Source of the DNA: Brachionus manjavacas
Taxonomy: Eukaryota; Rotifera; Eurotatoria; Ploima; Brachionidae
Direction of reading: 5' to 3'
Length of the DNA stretch: 64,000 nt
Assembly (NCBI GenBank): GCA_019054805.1
Contig: JAHQIY010000001.1
Location: 9,934,501 to 9,998,500, forward strand
Part shown: in pieces, positions 453 through 58,900 of the stretch
Numbering within the stretch: the stretch's first letter is position 1
Layout: every line of letters begins with the position of its first letter
Translations under genes and position numbers: made by a program
Notes under the pieces: model-generated
Database searches by the model: none
Told to the model about the DNA's origin: nothing
Seen by the model: only the letters and a program-made list of their open reading frames with translations

Positions 453-2362
453 TATTTTTTTTAAATAATTTAAAAATAAGAGGGTTCAGTTATAATTTCA
501 AAATAATTTAAAAGTCTTTGTTAAATAAAACCATTTTTATGATAAAATTAATTTTGTGCCATTTTTTATTCTAAACCCGTTATTAGTTCGAATTTAAGCT
601 TTTAATTAAGTGGCATTTTGAAAATTTAAATAAAATTTTTAAAGACATTTTCATAATTTTTTTAATTTTAGAAAAACTTTTTTTAAATAAAAAATATATA
701 AGAATTTAAATAATCATACTTTAAAAAGTATATCATTCAAAAGCTAGATTCATAAGCTTTAATTTTAATATTCAATATTTTTAAGGTAAACAGGGTTTAG
801 GAGTTCCTTAAGTTCATTTAGGCTCCTCATTTTCTGTGCATCTTTTCGTTAGCTATTGACTGTTATTTTTTATTTTTTTCCAGCAAAATTCGCTTAGCAC
901 CCATCTTATATTCTTAAATTAATTTTACAATGCTACCAAAAATGTTTGATCGCATATTTGCTTCACATGCATTTCAAATGAAATGTTCACAAGAATCCAA
1001 TGATTGAGAGTCTTCCAACAACGTTAAGTGTTACCCTTCCTGAAAAAAACCTCCGAAGAAAAAAATTTTAGCTCATTTTAATCAGGATAAAATTCCATAC
1101 AAAATGATGCATCATACTAGCATTTGAAGTTTCATTACCACTTAGGACAAGGAAGACCTAAGTGTAAGGGTCATTCATGAGTCCAGAACATGCCAAAAAA
1201 AATTTTGTTAAAAAGAGCTTGCTATTTTTGAAAACTTGATAAAATTTCAAACTTCAATTTTCATAATGTTATCTTAATGAGATCAGAAAATTTTTTCTTT
1301 TTAAAATTTAGGACAACCATTTTTTTCATTATTATAACAAATGTACTCAATATTTTTTTGTATTAATTAATTTTGCTATCAAAGATAAATTTTTTAAAAT
1401 TCAAACATTCAAATTTTGTTTTAATTGAAAATTTTTTTTGTTGGCATCAATTAAATTTGATCTTATAATTTTAGAGAAAAAGTTAAAGTTTAATTTTAGG
1501 AAATATCAATTTATTTGCTTTAATAAAACGAGGAAAATTTAGTTTTGTCAACAAATAATTATTAATCATGAAAATGAATTAATTAATCAAATTAAATATC
1601 AAATTTTGTATTATTTTAAAGAAAGACACAAAAATGGACTGTTTTAGTTATAAAATTAATTTTGAATTTCATCTAATAGAGTTTATTTACATTAATAGTT
1701 TATTCAAAATAAATGATAAATATTAACAATTCAAAAGACGCATCGATTTAGTTATAATTAAAATCTAATTGAATTGATTCATACTAAGATTTAAAGAATC
1801 AATTTATGCTTACGCAAAAAACGTATAAAATAAAACAACGAAGTTTATCATTCTGAATTATTTAATTTATTAAATGTAATTAAACTCTAAATCGATTTTA
1901 CATTAATTTAAAATACCAGTACCTGATGCAATTTTTGCAGCAAAAAAATTCTCTTTTTTAAAGCTCTTTTTGAAAAATTTTTACATATGAAATGATACAA
2001 TCTATGTGGATTACCCTATTCATTGGACACTACAATTAAGGAAAGAAAAAAAAATTGAAAAATCTTAAAATGCAAATTCATTTTCAGCATCAGTTGCCAG
2101 ACATTCTCAAAGCCCAATCTAGAACAACGCACTTAACTTGACCATTTGCTAAATTTTGAACTCTTTTTCACCACGAATGATTATTTATTGTTGGAATAGA
2201 GAACATTTTGATAGATTATCTTGAAATAGTTACAAATATTTGATAAAATTTTGCAGAAAAAATTAATTATCCTTAATTTATAAAAAAAAGAACATTTGAG
2301 AAAAAAAAAAAAAAAAAAAGTAAATTATATAATGAATGGCTGTGTTGCTATAGATAAGAATT
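453..2362. other. Intergenic, no gene seen
   Basis: AT-rich sequence with frequent stops in all frames. It includes a small 8-bp stem (CACTTAGG/CCTAAGTG) near 1139-1164 and a long A run at about 2302-2320. The region next to the kinase gene would contain its 3' UTR. Nothing else is supported. Confidence 0.5.
2184..2189 (-). terminator. Probable poly(A) signal of the Src-family gene
   Basis: AATAAA on the minus strand (TTTATT on plus), about 174 nt past the kinase stop codon. It is the nearest canonical hexamer. In AT-rich DNA this motif is common, so the assignment rests on position only. Confidence 0.4.
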
Positions 2363-5300
2363 CTAATCTCCCGGATTTCTGTAACACGGCTGAGTGTTAA
2401 TGAAATAGTCATTGAAAAAATGGTAGAGTGCATCGAATGTGGGTCGCTGTTGCGGGTCCTCGTGCCAGCATTTTAGCGTCATATTGTAGTAGGCGTCTGT
2501 GCAAAGACCTTGCGGCTTTGGCATTCGGTATTGATTTTCCTTGACTTCGTAAATTACTTGGGGATGAGTCATTCCGGGATAGGGGTTGGCGCCCAGAGTT
2601 ATCAATTCATACAAAAGGATTCCAAAAGACCAAACATCCGACTTGATGGTATAAGCTCTAAGGCCTGTGTGCGGGTCAACTGTGAACACTTCCGGAGCGG
2701 TCCATTTAACTGGAAACTTGTTCGACTCGTCTTGGCTAAGCTCTAGTTTATCATTGTTGTTCAACATTTGGGCAAAACCAAAATCGGCAATTTTGACAAT
2801 GTTACGCTCACCAACTAGGATGTTGCGCGCGGCCAAGTCTCTATGTACACAACGAGATCCTTCTAAATATTTCATACCACAAGCAATCTGAGCGGCCATG
2901 TCTATTATTTCCTTAAAGTTCAGGTGCATTCCTTCGCCCTCTCTCATGTACTTTAACAACGAGCCGTTGCACATGTACTCGGTCACAATGTAAACCGGCT
3001 CGCCAATTGTGCACACGCACCATAGTTTGACCAATTTTTCATGGCGAAGTTTTTTCATTATTTCAAGCTCTTTTCGGAATTCTTCTTTGCGCGCCTCTTC
3101 TTTTTTCACGTTGCGCTTTTCGGCGTCACTAAATTTTAGGGTCTTTACGGCCACGACAAACCGTTCGCGCCACAAGCCTTTGTACACTTCGCCAAAATTA
3201 CCTGCCCCTATCATTGGTCCTAGTTTAATATTTGCACGGTCCTCTTCCCACACGTCCTTAAAACCCACGAAGCTTGTCACCTTTTGACAAGGCTTGGTCA
3301 AAACCCTGCACAAACCGTTTGCAGCTTCTGATTAAAGATTGATAATTTAAAAAATAATTTAGAGAAAAAAAAGGAAATTTTTTGTTTGGAAAAATTTACT
3401 AGAATAAAATTCAACTAGTTCATCTAAAGAGTTAAATCGGTTCCGGGTTGAAATGTAACAACCACCAGAATCGATTTTTCTAATGCGGTAGTGTTTGGTA
3501 TGACGCTGTTTCTCTTCGTTGTAGTCGAGTATTGACAAGGACCAACATTTGCCATTGTCTTGTTCTGACTCGCGGATCAAAAAAACGCCTGGTTCATTGT
3601 CAAGATACTCCAAAAGACGCTCAGCTTCACGACGAGATGTATTCGGAAAAAACCATCTTTTTGTAGAAAAAGAAATCATTTAAAAAATGATAAAAAATCA
3701 TAGGCCAGCATAAAGATATTGGTTTTGACGGACGTGAAGGTTAATGACAATACGCCTTTATTTATTTTAAAATTTATTAATGTGTTAGGGCGTCAAGTAA
3801 AAAAGGTCCTAAAAAAATCACTCGCTCTTAAATAAAAATTTTAATTAATTAAATAAATAACAATTTTTTTAGATATTTTTTATTATTCTAGTCATGTTGT
3901 ACTCGTCTCATTGGGAAATAAAGATAGCCTAAATTTCAAATACGCATTTAGAAATTGGTCATATTTTGTAAATTTAGATTCAGATTTTTTAATAAAATTT
4001 TTCATAAAGAATTTAATTCGCATTGAGTATCTTAATATGGATACGAGTAAAATTTATCAACTCATTTAATTAGTTTTAAATTTGTTAAACCAAAAATAGC
4101 TTATTTTTCCAATACGTCTTTAACAAAGGTCACTAAAACAAAATAATTAACTACTTAAATAACATTTGGCAAAATAATTTTGGTATTTGGGAAAAAATTG
4201 ATTTTCTAATTTAAAAACAAAGTCAAATAAAATAGTCCTTTACACCCAAATACAAACTTTTAATATAATTAATGTCAAATGTGAAAATAATTCTCTTTTC
4301 TTTAGATTCAAATCCAGATTGCTAAACACGGTGTCTAAAATACCGACATTTGTTAAATGCGGAATTATTTTTCCAAAACTAAAATACGGACTCAAGAAAA
4401 CAAAAATTAGATTTTGTAAAAAAATTAAGTTCTAAAAATTTATTGCAGCAAATTTTTGTTTGTTTTTATGAAAGAGGACCTTAGTCAGCAAATGTTTACT
4501 TTTTTTTTTGATAAATTTTGCACTTCAGGATAGTGATTAATTCGAAAAATTGAATAAAATAACATAAAATAATTTTCATCTTTTGTATCTATTTCAAATT
4601 GTAATTCATTGCAAATAATCTTTGGGCCATTTTTGAAAATTAAAAAAGAAAAATGGAAAACAAAAAAATTTTTAAGATAAATTGGGGGTAATTGTCTTTG
4701 TCAGCTCAAGAGACCTATGATATAGTATGTGAGTATAAAAAGTTTCATTGAGACCAGATTTTAATACCTAAAATAGAAAGAAATGTTTTTTAAATAAATT
4801 TAAATTTTTTTATTTCTAAAATGAACATTTACAATTTTAACTTAAGTTAGTATTTTAGTTTAATCGTGTCCGTATTCCAGACTCCTAGTCCAGGTCCAGT
4901 GCGGTTTTTAATTAAATCGTTATGAATCAAAAAATTTTGGATTTTATCACTTAGAATTTTATAATTTCGCTTTAAATGATCGTGGTCGAACATGGATCAT
5001 AAAATTCCTGCTATTTAGAAATTTAATATTTTCAATTTTTTATTTTCATTTAAAATTTAAAAAAAATAACCATAAATTGAGTTAAATGATTTAAAGATTT
5101 GTTTTGACCATAAGAAAAACAGAAAATATGACGATTAGCCAAATAGATAGCTCTTATTTTATTATTTTTCATAAAGTCGAATTTCCAATAGACAAAAAAT
5201 TGAAAAATTTTAAATCTATTTTGTAAACTATTCTAATGAGAAAAAGATTGTCTTAATTTAAAAATTTTTTTTAGTAAATATGTAGTAGGGGTAAAGTTTA

Positions 5301-6949
5301 TATTTTTTTAGATTTAAAATAATATAAACTTTACCTAAATCGATTTAATTACACTTCGCCAGGCATATGTTGACACGGACCGTTGACCGGACCAAGTTTG
5401 AAAGGGCGATTGACAAAATTTTTTTTAAATATGTAGTAGGGGTAAAGTTTATATTTTTTTAGATTTAAAAAAAATTTTTAAATTAAGTCAATCTTTTTCT
5501 CATTGGAATAGTTTACAAAATAGATTTAAAATTTTTCAATTTTTTGTCTATTGGAAATTCGACTTTGGAATAATAAAATAAGAGCTATCTATTTGGCTAA
5601 TCGTCATATTTTCTGTTTTTCTTATGGTCAAAACAAATCTTTAAATCATTTAACTCAATTTATGGTTATTTTTTTTAAATTTTAAATGAAAATAAAAAAT
5701 TGAAAATATTAAATTTCCAAATAGCGAAACATTTAAAATTTTTGCTCAATGCATAAAATTTACAATCAAATTTAAATCTAGTTTTTCTAATATCAGATTT
5801 AAATTTTTTATCTAAAAACGATGAAAAAAATCTCTATTTTCTAACTTTGCTTTAAAATAGAATTTTTAATCTTTGCTTTAGTATTCTAAGCTTAAAACAC
5901 TTTACTTTATGACAAAAAATGAACAAAACTTTTTCAACAAAAAAATATACTTTTTTAATTGAAAAACTGTAATAAAATTTTCTATAAAAAATTGGCTCCA
6001 ATCTCAAATTAATTAAAAAAAAAAAATTATTTAGTTTTTAGAGAAAAAAATTATGAAAAAATTCAAACCCTTCCAATGTAAGCCTGGTCATTTTGGAGCC
6101 AACATTTGTCAAAAAAAAAAGTTGAATTTTCCTAGCAATCTCGACTGAAGAGAAAACTAGCTAAAGTCAAATATTCGAAAAATTTTTAATTAATTTCGTG
6201 ACAAAAAACCTTATTAGAAATTGTATATTTTTAAAATTAACAATTAAGCCAAAATCAAACTAACAAGGATTAGCATTTGTAATTGCTGTGTGTGTGTGTG
6301 TGGAGGTTAATCCCTAGGGGGTAACAAAGGCGGCCTAAAGCATCAATCGAACTTACTCTTTTATTTGAAGGTCGTCAATTGTAGTGATGTAATTAAATGG
6401 CACATAACCGGTTTCCTTGGTACGTAGGTTTTTGGCCAGCCACCAGTCTGGATGGCTCTTGTCTATAACAATCAGCTGGTCGTTCTTCTTTATTGTCATG
6501 TCATCCTTGGTCGCGCTTTCATAGTCAAACAAAGCAATGTAATTTGGCTTCTCTAGCAAGGAATTTGAATGAATTCCATTAGACAAAATGTGCTTGTTGT
6601 TTACGATTTGGTTAGACGACGATTGTGTGAGTAGAGAGTTGGACATGCCGTTTAGAATGGCCGTAGTGGAGCAGAAGCTTCCGTTTTGAGTGTGCGGCAT
6701 GCCGTTCTGATGGTGCAGCTGCTGGAGCAACATGTTCTGATTGTTATTCGAGTTGATTAGGTTGGGCGAGTGGTTCATGAGCGGGTACTGGTGGTGGCCG
6801 TTGACCGGACCAAGACCCGACGTCGTGTTTTCCAGATTGCCTTTTTGAATTCCCAATTTGTAGACTTGTTCGCGGTTAGAGCTCGTTTTGTACGAGTGGT
6901 GGCCACCGTGGTTGTCGGTGCCCTTGTTTGCCGGGCATATGTTTCCCAT
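2363..6949 (-). CDS. SRC: Src-family non-receptor tyrosine kinase (Src42A/FRK-like), 604 aa
   Basis: Exons on the minus strand are 6949-6357, 3656-3400 and 3327-2363, with phases closing exactly to 604 codons plus TAG. The start MGNICPANKG gives Gly2 for myristoylation and Cys5 for palmitoylation, so the protein should sit on the inner plasma membrane. An Asn/His/Gln-rich unique region spans about residues 2-134. SH3 is about 136-191 (ALFDY, WW, GYVPFNYI). SH2 is about 199-298, with FLIRES and the phosphotyrosine-binding Arg226. The kinase domain is about 318-585: GAGNFG loop 324-329, Lys345, Glu370, HRDLAARN 445-452, DFG 465-467 and APE 494-496. The tail TQPCYRNPGD keeps an inhibitory-type Tyr599. 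Oddities are a Lys/Glu-rich insert after the Lys345 strand, an insert after APE and no tyrosine in the activation loop. HRDLAARN and PVKWTAPE point to the Src42A/FRK side rather than vertebrate Src. The kinase domain has no intron. Confidence 0.93.
5011..5724. repeat. Large near-perfect inverted repeat (hairpin) in Src intron 1
   Basis: The left arm is about 5011-5272 and the right arm about 5466-5724. Read as reverse complements they agree over ~255 bp with about four substitutions and one short indel (ATGAAA versus GG near 5165-5175 and 5567). The ~190-bp centre holds a direct repeat of about 45 bp (5275-5319 and 5428-5472) and a GC-richer core (about 5350-5410). No coding sequence, terminal motif or target-site duplication is visible at the outer ends, so it does not look like a standard transposon. 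In Src pre-mRNA it would fold into a long double-stranded stem. Confidence 0.93.
5275..5319 (+). repeat. 45-bp direct repeat, left copy, inside the hairpin
   Basis: Begins AAATATGTAGTAGGGGTAAA and is repeated at about 5428-5472. The two copies bracket the GC-richer core. The left copy continues into a small stem of its own (AAAGTTTATA pairing with TATAAACTTT, about 5293-5332). Confidence 0.9.
6285..6302. repeat. Short (GT)n microsatellite
   Basis: A run of alternating G and T in Src intron 1, about 50 bp inside the exon 1 donor. Confidence 0.8.
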
Positions 6950-7025
6950 TCTCTTTGCACAATATCCAGTCCTGTTCGGGCTACAAGATCATTGCGAGGC
7001 GCATGAACCGTTCGGCTAACGGGAT
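6950..7025 (-). promoter_or_regulatory. Possible Src 5' UTR with a short uORF
   Basis: On the minus strand an acceptor-like TTTGGTTTAG ends at 7026, so a 5' UTR exon (or a spliced-leader acceptor) could start at 7025. It contains an upstream ORF at 7004-6981, MRLAMIL then stop, ending 31 nt before the kinase ATG. Position and motif are seen directly; use of the acceptor is inference. Confidence 0.35.
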
Positions 7026-7282
7026 CTAAACCAAAAAGAGTATTCGTTTAATTTTGGACTAGTTCGAATAGAAAAAACAAAATAAATAATTTCTTGCTAG
7101 CCTCGTTTGGAGATTTAAGTCTAAACTAAAAAATATAGATTAATTATCATATTTTATATTAGGATTTTTCTCTACTAGTGGTCGATTGATGTAGCTAGCT
7201 ATTAGTTTAAGAAAAGTATTGTTGAGTTATTCGCATTTGATTGTTGGCAATTATAATTTTTCATTCAAATATGGACCAAACT

Positions 7283-7472
7283 TTTTCCTTTGTTTTCTCT
7301 CTCGTACACCCCCCCCCCTATTCACTCTCGCTCTCGGCTTCTTTATCCTCTTGGCTTCAAGACCAAAAATATTTTTTTGTACACAAATAGTGAGCTGACT
7401 ACTTAGCTATTTACTGTATGTTTTATTAAAATTTGTGGCTTTCTCCCTCTCATCATCTCTCTCTCTCTCAAT
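7283..7472. promoter_or_regulatory. Pyrimidine-rich tracts upstream of Src
   Basis: A CT-rich stretch with a pure C run (about 7309-7318) is followed by (CT)n at about 7443-7470. On the coding strand of the kinase gene these are G and GA repeats 350-520 bp before the start codon, a common place for GAGA-type promoter sequence. No TATA box or initiator can be assigned with confidence. Confidence 0.35.
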
Positions 7473-10400
7473 CGTTTGCTTACAAGAAGATTAATTGAAA
7501 TTTTTAATTATGAATTATAATAAATCCTGACGTGATCTGAATCGGCTAGCAGTTGATCATTTGGAAAAATTAACCAAAACATTTGGCCAATAGACAATTT
7601 TTTTCTTTACAATAATTAAGCATGTTTTAGTTGCTGAATATAAATGACAATGGATTTTTGTTGCAGCCAAAGAGCCTCCAAGACTGTCTGAAAAAGAACC
7701 GAACAAAATTCAATTTTTTTTACTTAATTTAGATTCCCGAAGATATGAGACTAGATCAAAATCAAGTATTAAAAAAACAGAAAAAATAAAATATGGAAAT
7801 TTTTGTTTTCAAAAGTTCTTATTGTCGATCCCATTTTCAAGGGCGGTTGAATCCTTTTATAAAATCAAATAGAGAGAAAAAATAGAAATAACAAAGTTTA
7901 CTAATAATACAAATTAAAGTTGAATTTAAATTTTGACAACATGCTACAGAATTTTAAAAAATTCAAATTAATATTTTTTCAATTTTTCTACAAAAATGGT
8001 TAAAGGTAGATTTAAATCACGAAATAACTTGACTTAAAATATTGAGAATATATTTATATAATCATTTAACTTGCCTTTTGATGAAAAATAAAAAAAAAAC
8101 TTTTTCTTGGTTCATACGAAATTGTTGTTTGAACATTATTTCTTGTTCTTTTGATGTTTTCTTAATTAAAATTCCCAACGATACGAGACAAGATCAAAAC
8201 AAAGATTTAAAAAAAAATTTTGCTCCCCATTTACTAAACGAGAATGATCACTCTCATTTATAGATTAGTTTATCTATGCCAAATAAAAACTCTTTCAGTT
8301 CAACAAAAAATAAAAAAGTAAAAGATTAAATTTAAAAATAGTTGAAATGAAATGTAAAAGAGAGTTAAATAGATAAATTGAAACTGTGAATGACAGGGAA
8401 TAAGAATCCATATAATCCTTAGATATTTAAATAAATAATCACTCTATTTCTTGTTTTTGAGTTAATATTGCCGTTCTTGGCCGCTGAGATCATAACTAAT
8501 TGAATTCATCAGCCATTTTAATTCCAAATTGCTACAAGAAAAGGAAAAAATTATTTAAAAATTAAATGGCTCAACATATTTTTTATATTTTATTCTTCTA
8601 AAAATGAAAATTTATATTAACTCAATATGTAAATTAAAAAAAAATTTAAGATACATTTATTCGAATGGAAACTGAAAAGAAGATTTTTTTCAAGCCGTTC
8701 TGAGCCTCCTCGGGCTATTTTATTTAAAATATATTAATGGTGCAACTAATTATCTTCTTGATTAAAAAAATTAAAAATTTTTTTTTATTAATTTTGGTCT
8801 AATATTTCTATCTACTCACATATATCCAATAAATTAAATTATTCGACATTCTTTTTTCTATGTTTTCATGTTATACGAATTTATTTTGTTTTAAAACAAT
8901 GTATTTTTTTTATTTCTCAGATAAAAGATAAAAAAAATGTTGACTTGTTCTTGTTTGTAAATAGACTTATTGTAAACAAATTTTTTTTAGAGAATTCTAA
9001 TTGCGTTTGAAAATTAAAATTCTCTTTGTAAAATATTTTTGTTTACTTTTAAATTTGATTTATTAGTAAGTCAACTTTTTTATCACAATGTTTACATTTG
9101 ACGAGCAATTAAAAATTTCATAATTTCTAGGTAAAGTTTTAGAAAGACGTAAATATTTTTTTGATATTACCTTTAAACTTTTTTTTTAAAAAGCAATAAA
9201 GTAAAGCATAAATTTTATAGCACCTTTTCTTTTTTGTTAAATGTAATAAAATTTTCGAGCAAAAAAAATTGAAAAGATAAAAAAAAAGAAAAAGAAATTT
9301 GAAGCAGTTTTCTTTTTATCTATTTAAATTTTTGACTGTTCTGTTATCAAAATAACACTTTAAATATCAAATTAACGGTAAGTTGTAAAAATAGGATGCT
9401 TTAACCTAAAATAAAATGAATAATTTAAAATGAAAATAATTGTTAAATTCAATTAACTTAGCTTCAACATGTGTGATATTCTCTTTAGATTAAAACTAGA
9501 AATAATTTAAAAAAGAGAAGATCTGAAACGAATAAATCAAGAGCTATCTTTTGATGAAAATAATTTAGAAGAAAAAAATTATTTGTATAAAATAACAATT
9601 ATAAGACGAATTTTTCCTACTTAAATTTAAATGAATAAAATTTAACTTTTATTTACTTCTAAATTTGAAACTGTTTATTGTTTTTTCTTCAAACCTGATA
9701 ATTTTGTCAAATGATAATTTTAATTTCAACAAGCTTATGTTTAATTTTTTAAATTTTTCAAAAATTCAATTCTTTTCTAGTGTCTTAAACTAATTTCATT
9801 TGAAAAAAAAACGCTTCATTGAGTTCGAATTTATTTAACTTAATTTATGCCTTACATTTTTTTTATTTTAAATATTTAATTGTTGAATTTTATGACCTTA
9901 TTTTGAATAGTAAGCTGATATTTTATCGTAAAATATTCAAATAATTCAATTTTTATCAAAAATCATTTTCGGTCTAATAATAATAGATTTTTTTCCACTC
10001 GAAGCCAAACTAAAATTTAAGACACTTATTGAAATTAAAAAAAAATTAAGTCTTCGATCAAAATAAACCGATTTATCATTCATTCTTTTAACCATATATC
10101 TCCAAAAAAAAACATACAGATCTGTCTGAAATTAAAGACTGGCAAAATTTAATTTTGTAAATAATTATTTTATTTTTAAGTCTTCTATCATAACAATTCT
10201 AAATAAGTAAAAATATTTTTGTTGTCTGTCTATGCCCAAGTAAATGAATAAATTAATTTGAACAACACTTGATTTCAGAATCTCAGCCAAATTTTTCACG
10301 GAGCTTATGAGCAGATAATTTAAAAATTCTACTAAAAAATTCCAAACAAGTCTTAAATAACTTTAGTTTTAATTTATTTGTAGAACCCATAAAAAATTAG

Positions 10401-15321: not shown

Positions 15322-18300
15322 ATGGAGGCTCTAATTCCGGTTTTGAATAAATTACAAGATGTTTTTAACACTGTAGGACACGAAAGCATCCAATTGCCTC
15401 AAATAGTCGTTGTTGGAACCCAAGTAAATTATTTTTTTTTCAATTTTATTTTGTTTTCAATATTTTGTTAAATTTTTTAGAGCTCCGGAAAAAGTTCAGT
15501 TCTTGAAAATTTAGTAGGACGAGATTTTTTGCCACGAGGAACTGGAATAGTTACAAGACGACCTTTAATTTTACAGCTAATTTATACTCCTAAAGAAAAT
15601 AAAGAAACAATTAGTGATGACTCGGATAATTTGAATGACAATGTACCTAAAGAAGCTGATGAATGGGGTATTTTCCTGCATGCGAAGAATAAGACTTTTA
15701 CAGATTTCAGTGCAATAAGACAAGAAATCGAGGATGAGACTGAACGGGCGACCGGTCGAAACAAAGGTGTATCTCATGAACCAATTGTACTCAAAATTTA
15801 TTCACCAAACGTAGTCACATTAACTCTGGTTGATTTACCAGGTATCACAAAAGTTCCAGTGGGGGATCAGCCTCAAGATATCGAACATCAAATCAAAGAA
15901 ATGATTTTGAATTACATAAGCAATCCCAATTCGATAATTTTGGCCGTGTCATCGGCTAATGCAGATTTTTCAACTTCGGAGGCATTGAAATTGGCCAGGG
16001 ACGCTGATCCAGAAGGCCGGAGAACTTTAGCAGTTGTAAGTAAGCTCGATTTAATGGACCATGGTACCGATGCTTATGATGTTTTATGCGGTAGAGTTAT
16101 TCCAGTTAAACTCGGAATAGTTGGTGTCATTAATAGAAGTCAACTGGACATAAAAAATAAAAAAGTAATTAAATTTAAAATTTTGTTTTCTTTGGTCGAT
16201 AATTTGATTTTTTAAAAGCCGATTGAGGAAGCTCTCAAGGATGAAGCTTCATTTTTACAGAAACATTATCCAAGTATTGCGAGCAGGAATGGCACTCAGT
16301 ATTTAGCAAGAACTTTAAACCGACTTTTGATGCATCACATTAGAGATTGTTTACCGTCGCTTAAAACGCGGATTAATGTAATGGCATCACAATTCAGTTC
16401 ATTGGTCAATTCTTTCGGTGAACCAGTTGAAGATAAAGTAACCATTTCATTTTTTTAATATAAACAAAATATTCAAGCTTGAGCAAAATGAAAAATTCAG
16501 AAACTTTTAAAATTTCGAAAAAAAAATTAAAAAAACAATTTTCCAAAATGCAATATTTATAAAATTAAACTAAACTTAAATTTTATTTAATACTGATTTT
16601 TTTTATTATTTTAATTGTACACTATTGAAATCAATGTTTTGTATCTAGTCTTAGCTTCAAAAATTTAAAGGCTCTTGAAAATATTAAATAATTTTTAATC
16701 TAAATCTTAACTATTAATAAGCATAAATTTAATGAATTGTTGATTCTGGGATTTTAATTTTGTTAATAGCATAAGATAATGTAGAAAACTTTGTTACATT
16801 TGATCAGACTTGTTTTTAAGTCACAATTATTAAGTCAAGTCAAGTCAATGGCCTAAAATTTTTTTTTTAATAAAATAAATTTCTAAAAAACCATAATGTT
16901 AAGTTATATTGGTCAGAGTTATCTGCATTTATATAATTTTTAAACATTTTATGATTTTTTTGATTGTTAACTATAAAAAAAAAATTAGTTCAAGTCATAA
17001 CTTTAACTTAAACTTTTGTGACTTAGACTTAAAACTGTGACTTATAAACAAGTCTGCATTTGATTAATCTTTCAAGAAATATTATAGAAAAAAGGCACTT
17101 ATAGTTTGTTAAAGATTAAAGACTGAGCATCCTTTATTTTATTTTATATCTTAGGTTCTTTTTAAATACCATATTCCCTCATTCGATTATGCTGCGCCAC
17201 AAGCTCAAGTAAATCAGGTCTTGATAACGCGTTAAATTAAGAATTTTAGAGTTTGACGCGGACCTAAACCGGTGTTTAGGCCATTAGACCATGCGTTCAA
17301 AATGATATAGCATGTGGGAGATGTTCTTTTGTTCATGATCCAAAAACGTGTTTTAGCTTGTGGTGCAGAATAATGCAACAAGGTAATACGATAAATCTGT
17401 TCACAAAAAATAGCCGTTGCTCAAAAATGTACTGGAAAAGGTGATTAGCGCCTACCTAGTTTGAGATAGAAAAGGATTGTTACTTTTATAATTATGATTT
17501 TGATTGCTATTAATATATATATTTATTAATTATATTATGTAATTAACTAAATGAAATATTGAAAATAAAATATTTTTCTAAATAATTTTCTTTCATTTAA
17601 ATTTTCTTTCCTTTTCTTATTCTTTTATAATTTAAATTCATCTTGACATTTAAATTTAGGATTGGAATTTGCCTATCAGTTTTAGATTTTTTATTTTTTA
17701 AAAAAGAAAGAATATGTGAGCAAATTTTCTTTCAATATTATGCCTAGCTAAAAGTTAATAATATTCGATTTTATTATTTTCTTTCATTTACTATCAAATA
17801 AATATCATAAAATCATATCATATTTTCCCTTCTAAAATAGTTTATTTAAGACACAATGAGCGAAAAAATGGTCGAAGTCCTTCTTAAAAGACTAACAAAT
17901 GTTAAAAACCCAATTTAGAATTTATTCGATTTATATTTAAGGCGAAAAATTTAATCAGTTTTAGGATTAAATTAAAACTAAGTTAAAAAACTGATAAAAA
18001 ACCAAATTCGTTTTTTTTATTTTTTGATTCATGTGATTTTTCAGAAAAAAATAAAAAAATAACCAACAATAAAACGAATTCTCGTTGAAAAGAAAAAATT
18101 TATTTCAGAAAATTAAAACTTTTAAAATCAATAACAAATTAATTAATAAATCTATGGCATCCAAAATATTTAATAGTCCTTTATAGGGAAAACTTTTGCT
18201 GCAAATAATTACAAAGTTCGCCACGGCATACTGCGCTACAATTGAAGGAACAGCTAAAAATATCGAAACGAACGAGTTGTAAGTTCTTGAATAAAATTTT

Positions 18301-49759: not shown

Positions 49760-49801
49760 ATTTGTGCTTCTTAAGTTCAAAAGATAAAATCAAAGCACCT
49801 A

Positions 49802-50121
49802 TAGTATTTCCTCGTTCGATTATGCTGCGCCACAAGGTAAGACACGCTTTTGGGCCATGTACCAAAGTAAATCTCGCCCATGCTATAACATTTTAATTTA
49901 AACGCATAGTCTACTAACGTAATCTGGGATTTTGGTGACATCAAACTCTGAAATTCTTAATTTAATGGATTATCAAGACTTGATTTTAAAAACAAAAAAA
50001 AAGAACACTTTTCTTCAATAATGCATCCGGTACAGAACAAAACATTCAGGAAAAAAATTGAAAAGTTTAAAATTAAAATATTTCAGAGTTTGATGCAGCA
50101 TAATCAAACGAGGGAATACTG
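49802..50121. mobile_element. MITE copy B (same family as 17169-17391)
   Basis: TA-flanked (49800-49801, 50122-50123), about 320 bp. The left end is TAGTATTTCCTCGTTCGATT and the right end, reverse-complemented, CAGTATTCCCTCGTTTGATT. The left 185 bp align as reverse complement with nearly all of copy A. The right part (about 49990-50085) is absent from copy A, so either B carries an insertion or A a deletion. It has no coding capacity. Confidence 0.82.
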
Positions 50122-55955: not shown

Positions 55956-58900
55956 ATGTGGCCTTACCGTACTTTTGTCTTAATTACAATTTTGGCTCTA
56001 AATTCAGTCGAATCATTGTTCGGTAAGAATCTTAATTTAATATTTTTTCCAAATAAATTAGCAAACAAACTTTTAATTTTTTCATTCAAATTTTAGTCTA
56101 TTATCAAAATTATGAATTTTTTTCAACAATCAAACTAAACGATTACAATGGCTATTACGGAAATGTAAAAGTACTCAAGTACTCAATGCCGAATGATGTT
56201 TTGTCAGCGATTTGGCGTCTTCAATTGGTCTCGAGTGAAAAATGTCCTCCCACTGACGTTTATTTGTAAGTGCTTTGAATATTTTATAAAAAACACTCAA
56301 ACAACTGATTGTTTTGATACGAACCATTTTAAAGTGTCATTTTAAAACTCTTGAATCCAAATAGAACATATTAAGGATTAAGATTTATAACTATTAAGAG
56401 CCGAAAAGAGCTTAAAAAAAAATGTGATCTTAAATGATTTTATTAAAATGTAAAAATCTAAACTAAATTAATATCTTAAGTCAGAAAAACAAAGAGAAGT
56501 AACTTACGATGCTAACTTTTTATAGTTGAGTTTTATTTTTTTTTTTAATTAAATTTTTGATAAAAATAAAAATTGTCATTTTTTTGATTGTTAAAAATTA
56601 TTGGGATCTCTCAGGAAACTTGTGGATTTCTTTTTGATGGAGCTATTTGGATAAACTAAATTTGTCCTCATATTAAAAAAATCTTATAAGAAATAATTCG
56701 CGATATTTACTTAATTAAAAAAAATTTAATTTTTTCTTTTTTAAATAATTTTTTAATCATTTTAATTAAATAAAAAAAGAAATTAGAAACTAGTTACCGT
56801 GAACTCTTGTTCATAATTACATATAATACTTACGGTTTTTCGAGTATAATAAAAAGTAACATTAACCGAAAAACAGGATATTTCTTACTTAGTATAATTA
56901 CATGTAACTAAGTGCCGATGCTTTGTTATAATTGCTCAATTTTAAACAAAAAATCTTTAAAATTGACTTATTTATTATTTAATTTTTTAATAATTAAAAA
57001 CGTCAAATAATTGATTTTTCTAAAAAAAAATTTTGTTCAAATTTTTATTTAATTTGCTTTAAAATTCTTAAACAAAAATTTATTGATAAATCCTTGATAT
57101 TATCTATTAATTAAAATTCTATCATTCTTGGAATCTTTTAAAATACACATAAAAATTTAATGATCTTGCTTTTAAAAGTTCATTCTGATTAATTTAAATT
57201 AATCAGAATGAATTTTTTTTCCAAATTTATTCTTAATTTTTTTGATTAAAGGGTCTTTAATTTCGATGCAAATTGCTCATTTGGCTTTACTTGCTTCTCA
57301 GCATGTCATGTCCATCTCGGTGATCTCTTCCATGATTGTTGACCTCCTAGTTATTCTTAGTCGTCCTACTCTCCGTCGCCCTTCAGGTTTCCGTTGAAGA
57401 GTTCTGTTTGGTATACGCGTTCCATTCATTCTAAGTATAGTCCAAGCCACCACAAAAATTAATCTGACCTGAAGTCTAGTCCAGTGACTAAAGCAGCGGC
57501 CTAAGCACACCTTGATGTTTCTGACATTTTAGATTCCAATTCTGCATTTGTATTGCGCAGTAAATAAACCACTTTTCTGCTTGCTACCTCACAGTAGGTT
57601 TTCATTTTCAAGCGTCATCAATGGCATTTCTTTGGCCATTGGGTACTCATTTGAGTTTCTTTCTGCTTCTTTGATTTCTTAGAAACTAGTTATTATACTT
57701 GGGCGGTCAAGTAGCTAGCCCTACGCACTATCAATGTTTAAAAAATAATATTTTTATATATTTATTTAGTCAAATTTCATTCAATTTTCTAATTGTTTCA
57801 GTTACAATTACATGCAATTAGATTAAGTGAAAATATCTCTTTTCTCCATTATTATTATATGGTGATATTTAGTTATGATTACGCAATTATGAACAATAGA
57901 TTACAATATCTTAATACAGTGTAACCTAGGTTTTATGAACCCCGGTTGAACTATGACAACCACTTCATAAAACTGAAACTTCATCAGTTCGACTTTTTGA
58001 AGTCACTTCATAAAAAAAAATTAGGATTTAGTAAAATTTTTTATTAACAAAATTAAACAAAACGATTATCTATTTTAATTTAAACTGGATACTAATTGGA
58101 AAAATTTTATATCGGTAGGGACATAATTATGTTTTTGTTCAACTAATGAGATGATTTGTCTACAGAGTCTTACTCTAAAGAACCCTTTAAGACACTTAAT
58201 CACATCCGCGTCCATAGGTTGAGTTACACTAGAATCAAGTTGAAAAAAATAAAAATATTGTTTTTTTGCAATTAAAAAAATCGTTAACAATGTATTTTTT
58301 CCAAATAACAGCTTTTTTAAAGTAAGACTACCTAAAAATCTGACAAAATAGAGAAAAAATCGGTAAAAATAAAATAACTGATCAACAGAGATGGTAAATT
58401 GCATTTTTTTGAAAAATCAGACAAAGACTGAAAGAGAAATAGCCGAGTTAACGAAATAATGAACAAAAAAAGCAATCAAATAGAAAAAAAAGTTTGATTC
58501 TAACTTTTTGTGACAAAAATATTCATTAAATCATTTAATCAACACTATGAAAGAAAATTTTTAAAATCAATTTTTAATAAAAATTTTTCAATATAATAAA
58601 AAAAATGAATCAATCAATTAAATAATCAATACTAATTTCTTTTACTTTTATTTTTGTTATTCTGGCAGCGAAGCAACAGATAAAACCTTGTTTATATACA
58701 AAACTTTATAATTTTCCTAAATACCAAAAATAATTAATTGATTGTCAATAAAAATTATCAAAAATATTTTTCTGAAAATAGTAAATATTCAATATTTATT
58801 CCATCAAATTTTTTAACTTTTAATTTGTATTTTTTAGAGAAAATTGCAATTTTTTTTCAAAGCTTATAAACTCTGTAAAAAAATTAAGTTTCAATTCTTT

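What the first reader, a model, noticed from the sequence alone, without database searches (positions are those of the whole stretch)
5011..5724. ~260-bp-arm near-perfect inverted repeat in Src intron 1
The arms differ at only a handful of positions, so the duplication is recent or kept similar by gene conversion. There are no transposon hallmarks at the ends. Every Src pre-mRNA would carry a stem of ~255 bp, a possible substrate for Dicer or ADAR, or a driver of circular RNA or exon 1 retention.
Basis: partly seen in the sequence, partly recalled or inferred. Interest (0 to 1): 0.7.

Follow-up and report, generated by a model that had tools for sequence, protein, structure and literature searches.

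The report
Single-locus inverted repeat in Src intron
An intron of a Src-type kinase gene in an unnamed animal genome carries a stretch of about 260 bases that appears to have been copied once, backwards, beside itself, so its RNA should fold into a long hairpin; it looks like a fairly recent local copying accident rather than a transposon, and no function has been shown.

Summary
The repeat is real. Arms 5010-5273 (264 nt) and 5466-5725 (260 nt) agree at 256 of 264 alignment columns (4 substitutions, 2 gaps) around a 192-nt spacer. The best of 100 shuffles of the intron reached 59.9 bits against 435. It lies in one 2,700-nt intron, between the SH3 and SH2 exons of a minus-strand Src-type kinase gene. 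Searches of the 114-Mb assembly with the arms and the spacer found this locus only, plus one 38-nt match. Of four other long inverted repeats in 264 kb, three have 22, 36 and 45 further matches, many partial; the fourth has three partial ones. No target-site duplication abuts the ends. The spacer holds a direct copy of its own start and a palindrome, which fits serial local template switching. Best reading: a young local inverted duplication, passively transcribed as a hairpin. The genome encodes an ADAR-type deaminase and a Dicer, so editing or dicing is possible but untested. The circular-RNA idea is weak, because both arms lie in the same intron. Ordinary in kind.

The parts
5010..5273 (+). 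left arm of the inverted repeat, 264 nt
5466..5725 (-). right arm of the inverted repeat, 260 nt; 256 of 264 columns identical to the left arm
5274..5465 (.). spacer, 192 nt, 29% G+C; no other copy found in the assembly
5261..5319 (+). first copy of a direct repeat (59 columns) that straddles the inner end of the left arm
   Evidence: 95% identical to 5415-5470; spacing 151
5415..5470 (+). second copy of the direct repeat, running into the inner end of the right arm
5290..5335 (.). 46-nt imperfect palindrome inside the spacer
   Evidence: 91%
5415..5430 (+). one half of a 16-nt perfect short inverted repeat (partner 5463-5478, 32 nt between). It may have primed a fold-back, or may be a by-product of the copying
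5463..5478 (-). other half of the 16-nt short inverted repeat, at the inner junction of the right arm
3657..6356 (-). intron that holds the repeat (GTAAGT donor at 6356, AG acceptor ending at 3657), 2,700 nt
   Evidence: splice sites placed by eye from frame and consensus, no transcript data
6357..6988 (-). upstream coding region: open frame with an SH3 domain and an internal MGN that could be the start
3365..3656 (-). downstream exon region with SH2 domain
   Evidence: 3365-3655 scanned
2366..3331 (-). open frame with the tyrosine kinase domain

Best explanation
It is a fairly young, local inverted duplication of intron sequence, made by DNA synthesis that switched template one or more times at this place (fold-back or microhomology-mediated type). 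One possible order: a tandem slip of about 151 nt duplicated the segment now at 5261-5319 and 5415-5470; the nascent end then folded back at a short A/T-rich inverted repeat at the arm boundary, copied about 260 nt in reverse, and rejoined the chromosome. The product is transcribed as part of the Src intron and should form a stem of about 260 bp that leaves with the spliced intron. Shown: anatomy, no other copy found, intron position, predicted fold. Inferred: transcription, template switching, its order, which arm is the original, and that the hairpin has no selected role.
For: No other copy of arms or spacer found, save 38 nt, while the same search gives 22, 36 and 45 further matches, many partial, for three of four other long inverted repeats of the sample and three partial ones for the fourth. 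No target-site duplication at the ends. Spacer with a direct copy and a palindrome, both of local sequence. A 16-nt perfect short inverted repeat at the inner junction of the right arm; inverted repeats of 13 nt or more with up to 60 nt between occur at 9 distinct places in 64 kb, two of them in this spacer. Eight differing columns speak against a fold-back read artefact. Published mechanism: template switching can make reverse-complement repeats capable of a perfect hairpin (PMC8794818, abstract and start of introduction); yeast fold-back inversions start from single-strand hairpins with stems as short as 4 bp, and their median loop is 36 nt where MRE11 and SAE2 are intact (3-4 nt without them) (PMC7467729, passages).
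Against: No related genome could be searched, so the state before the event is unseen. If the left arm is the original, the 16-nt short repeat is largely a by-product and not independent evidence. The genome search skips very common words, and the arms are 83% and 81% A+T, so relatives may be missed. A 38-nt match at 92% on contig C12 had no counterpart in the single reversed-sequence control, and the same locus holds a weaker match to the arm end (77% of 62 columns, E 3e-4, among many short A/T-rich matches), so a faint, older relative is not excluded. L019 shows that the contrast with other repeats is one of degree.
Confidence: 0.7

Rival explanations
1. A lone copy of a fold-back or MITE-like transposon with long terminal inverted repeats.
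For: Long arms with a short spacer are the shape of fold-back elements (recalled). Other long-arm inverted repeats with dispersed copies exist in this genome. A 38-nt match to the arm end on C12, with a weaker second one nearby.
Against: No second full or half copy found in 114 Mb; no target-site duplication at the ends; the C12 locus shows no inverted repeat of its own at E 1e-3.
Confidence: 0.15
2. A functional hairpin RNA: the intron hairpin is diced into small RNAs or edited by ADAR, with an effect on Src expression.
For: Strong predicted stem; ADAR-type deaminase and Dicer encoded in the genome.
Against: No long complementary target found elsewhere in the genome; no Rfam match over the arms at E up to 1; no expression data either way.
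Confidence: 0.1
3. Assembly or sequencing artefact (fold-back chimaera of reads).
For: Palindromic read chimaeras are a known long-read error (recalled); no reads were available.
Against: Arms differ at 8 columns, a 192-nt spacer lies between them, and the repeat sits inside a gene whose exons continue on both sides.
Confidence: 0.05

Closest known systems
Template-switch mutations that create hairpins (PMC8794818, abstract and start of introduction seen)
   Same: A reverse-complement copy made beside its template, without a transposon.
   Different: Here the stem is about 260 bp, with a spacer that carries further local copies; the state before the event is not seen.
Fold-back inversions primed by single-strand hairpins (yeast, PMC7467729, passages seen)
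   Same: Inverted duplication at a short inverted repeat; the 16-nt stem and 32-nt loop here are of the size reported there.
   Different: Those are gross chromosomal rearrangements with secondary events; this one is small and lies inside a contig.
Long intronic inverted repeats edited by ADAR, such as paired Alu elements (recalled; only titles and abstract starts seen)
   Same: Long intramolecular duplex in an intron.
   Different: Those are made of two transposon copies; here the arms have no other copy found, and editing is not shown.
MITE and fold-back transposons (recalled)
   Same: Inverted arms around a spacer.
   Different: No dispersed copies found and no target-site duplication at the ends.

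Membership tests
Fold-back / MITE transposon | dispersed copies in the genome | tested here: not met
   only the locus itself plus a 38-nt match; the same search found further matches for other repeats
Fold-back / MITE transposon | target-site duplication at the ends | tested here: not met
   flanks differ; longest shared word lies at unequal distances from the ends
Fold-back / MITE transposon | long terminal inverted repeats | tested here: met
Local template-switch inverted duplication | inverted copy beside its template, single locus | tested here: met
   at the sensitivity of the search
Local template-switch inverted duplication | microhomology or short inverted repeat at the switch point | tested here: inconclusive
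   16-nt short inverted repeat at the junction, but it may be a by-product
Local template-switch inverted duplication | ancestor without the inverted copy | not testable with these tools
   no relatives of this genome are held (note)
Hairpin RNA locus (endo-siRNA) | long stem in a transcribed unit | tested here: inconclusive
   stem predicted in an intron; transcription is inferred from the gene, not shown
Hairpin RNA locus (endo-siRNA) | small RNAs of about 21-23 nt from the stem | not testable with these tools
   no RNA data
circRNA-driving intron pairs | complementary sequences in introns on both sides of an exon | tested here: not met
   both arms lie in the one intron 3657-6356

The most novel reading that the evidence does not exclude
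A newly born intronic hairpin RNA gene: one template-switching episode gave a Src intron a 260-bp duplex that is now diced or edited and tunes Src output, which would catch the birth of a long hairpin RNA without a transposon.
Probability: 0.07. Interest if true: 0.6.

Novelty: new member of a known kind. Interest (0 to 1): 0.25.

Why it matters
If long reads confirm it, the locus is a clean example of a long hairpin arising in a gene without a transposon, and a natural test of what an animal cell does with a 260-bp intronic duplex. Otherwise it is one more local duplication in an A/T-rich intron.

Tried and rejected
Rfam scan of 2000-7500 at E up to 1: one sub-threshold snoRNA-like hit (24.7 bits against a gathering score of 44, E 0.2) at 4922-5009 on the minus strand, ending one base before the left arm; treated as chance. 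Circular-RNA role: put aside on geometry. Transposon: rejected as first choice for lack of copies and of a target-site duplication. Host identity: size and base composition recall Brachionus-type rotifers (recalled), but an exact search for a rotifer spliced-leader sequence, typed from recall, gave 0 hits, so I name no organism; the passages of PMC6555955 that I saw did not settle it. Literature: seven searches; the last found nothing; none was aimed at this exact locus, so I make no claim about what is in print. The survey of 20 stretches of 10 kb plus the window (264 kb of 114 Mb) is too small for a genome-wide rate.

Full report
Observation. The inverted repeat is present and slightly larger than stated. 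The left arm is 5010-5273 (264 nt) and the right arm 5466-5725 (260 nt). In a gapped local alignment 256 of 264 columns are identical, with 4 substitutions and two gaps of 3 and 1 nt. A blastn self-comparison of the window gives the same pair at 96.97% and 435 bits. Among 100 dinucleotide-preserving shuffles of the intron the best minus-strand self-match was 59.9 bits, so chance is excluded although the arms are 83% and 81% A+T. The minus strand of 4980-5760 folds as RNA at -388.8 kcal/mol; 20 shuffles gave -112 +/- 6.3.

Place. The gene is on the minus strand. Open frames carry an SH3 domain (6353-6988), an SH2 domain (3365-3655) and a tyrosine kinase domain (2366-3331), in Src order. A GTAAGT donor at 6356 and an AG acceptor ending at 3657 bound a 2,700-nt intron. 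I placed the splice sites by eye from frame and consensus, without transcripts. The right arm's outer end is 631 nt from the donor, and the left arm's outer end 1,353 nt from the acceptor. Whether untranslated exons lie upstream is not known, so 'intron 1' means the intron after the first coding exon found.

Copy number. The window is in a 114-Mb, 61-contig assembly. The repeat, the spacer, window 4960-5110 and window 5100-5273 each match only this locus, save one 38-nt stretch at 92% on contig C12 (E 9e-7, 2e-7). Window 4960-5110 written backwards matched nothing at E up to 1 (one control only), so that short match may be better than chance. In the 3 kb around it (L002) a looser comparison shows a second match to the arm end, 77% of 62 columns at E 3e-4, among many short A/T-rich matches, and no inverted repeat of L002 with itself at E 1e-3. 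I read this as weak; it leaves room for a faint, older relative. The tool warns that very common words are skipped and that counts are lower bounds.

Control repeats. In 20 sampled stretches of 10 kb plus the window (264 kb), counting pairs with arms of 100 nt or more, identity of 80% or more and a spacer up to 3 kb, there were four besides the Src repeat (which that call lists as one through-aligned palindrome): L019 6497-8371, L020 7936-9366, L020 6315-7477 and L027 1196-2223. One arm of each of the four was searched. Besides their own two arms they had 3, 22, 36 and 45 matches, many partial. So the search does find families, and three of the four controls belong to one. L019 is close to the Src case: its three further matches are 67 to 99 nt long and none is a second inverted pair. 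The Src repeat has the shortest spacer of the five (192 nt against 688 to 1,365). The window was chosen because of this repeat, so this gives no rate.

Ends and spacer. The flanks directly outside the arms differ, so there is no target-site duplication at these ends. The longest shared word near them, TAAAATT, lies 3 nt outside the left end and 8 nt outside the right and occurs 120 times on the + strand of the window. The spacer is not simple: 5261-5319 and 5415-5470 are direct copies (95%; spacing 151), 5290-5335 is an imperfect palindrome, and 5336-5414 is 46% G+C in an intron of 23%. A perfect 16-nt inverted repeat, 5415-5430 with 5463-5478, sits at the inner boundary of the right arm. In the whole window inverted repeats of at least 13 nt with up to 60 nt between occur at nine distinct places, two of them in this spacer.

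Mechanism. These features fit repeated template switching at one place. If the right arm is the original, the 16-nt repeat could have primed a fold-back after a tandem slip of about 151 nt. If the left arm is the original, the 16-nt repeat is mostly a consequence. The data do not choose. Published work supports such events in general: template switching can create reverse-complement repeats that form perfect stems (PMC8794818, abstract and start of introduction), and yeast fold-back inversions use hairpins with stems as short as 4 bp, a hotspot with a 15-bp stem, and loops of median 36 nt where MRE11 and SAE2 are intact, 3-4 nt where they are not (PMC7467729, passages). Substitutions at 4 of 260 aligned positions (1.5%) suggest a young event or later homogenisation; no rate is known to me for this animal, so I give no date.

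Consequences. The genome encodes an ADAR-type deaminase (A_deamin; best solved relatives are chains named double-stranded RNA-specific editase 1; no double-stranded-RNA-binding domain was seen in the two frames scanned) and a Dicer (platform, dimerisation and PAZ domains; best solved relatives named Endoribonuclease Dicer; only 1,092 of the 1,872 residues of the open frame were held, so the nuclease domains were not examined). So editing or dicing of the intron stem is possible. Nothing here shows that either happens. Back-splicing is described as mainly helped by pairing between introns that flank an exon (PMC8938519, passages); both arms lie in the same intron with no exon between them, so a circular-RNA role has no support. 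Pairing would only shorten the effective intron.

Verdict. A real, single-locus, probably young local inverted duplication that should yield a long intronic hairpin; ordinary in kind, mildly interesting as a probable transposon-free case.

Noticed in passing
window 17211-17393 and 49800-49986: Two inverted, dispersed copies (76% identical over 188 columns) within the window, a candidate old repeat family.
   Followed up: no
window 57174-57217: A 44-nt near-perfect palindrome (95%).
   Followed up: no
L020 6315-7477 and 7936-9366; L027 1196-2223: Long-arm inverted repeats with many further matches in the genome, perhaps DNA-transposon families.
   Followed up: partly
L019 6497-8371: Inverted repeat with 255-nt arms at 98% and only three partial matches elsewhere; a frame overlapping its right arm looks by eye like part of a retroelement (not tested by a family search).
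   Followed up: partly
window 5336-5414: A G+C-rich stretch of the spacer (36 of 79 bases, in an intron of 23%), without another copy found in the genome.
   Followed up: partly
G000 C5:3129053-3129781 and C5:3637955-3640066: Further A_deamin matches; in the second cluster two of the four matches hold TAA stops, perhaps introns or a decayed copy.
   Followed up: no
window 4922-5009: Sub-threshold C/D snoRNA-like match (24.7 bits, gathering 44) on the minus strand that ends one base before the left arm.
   Followed up: no
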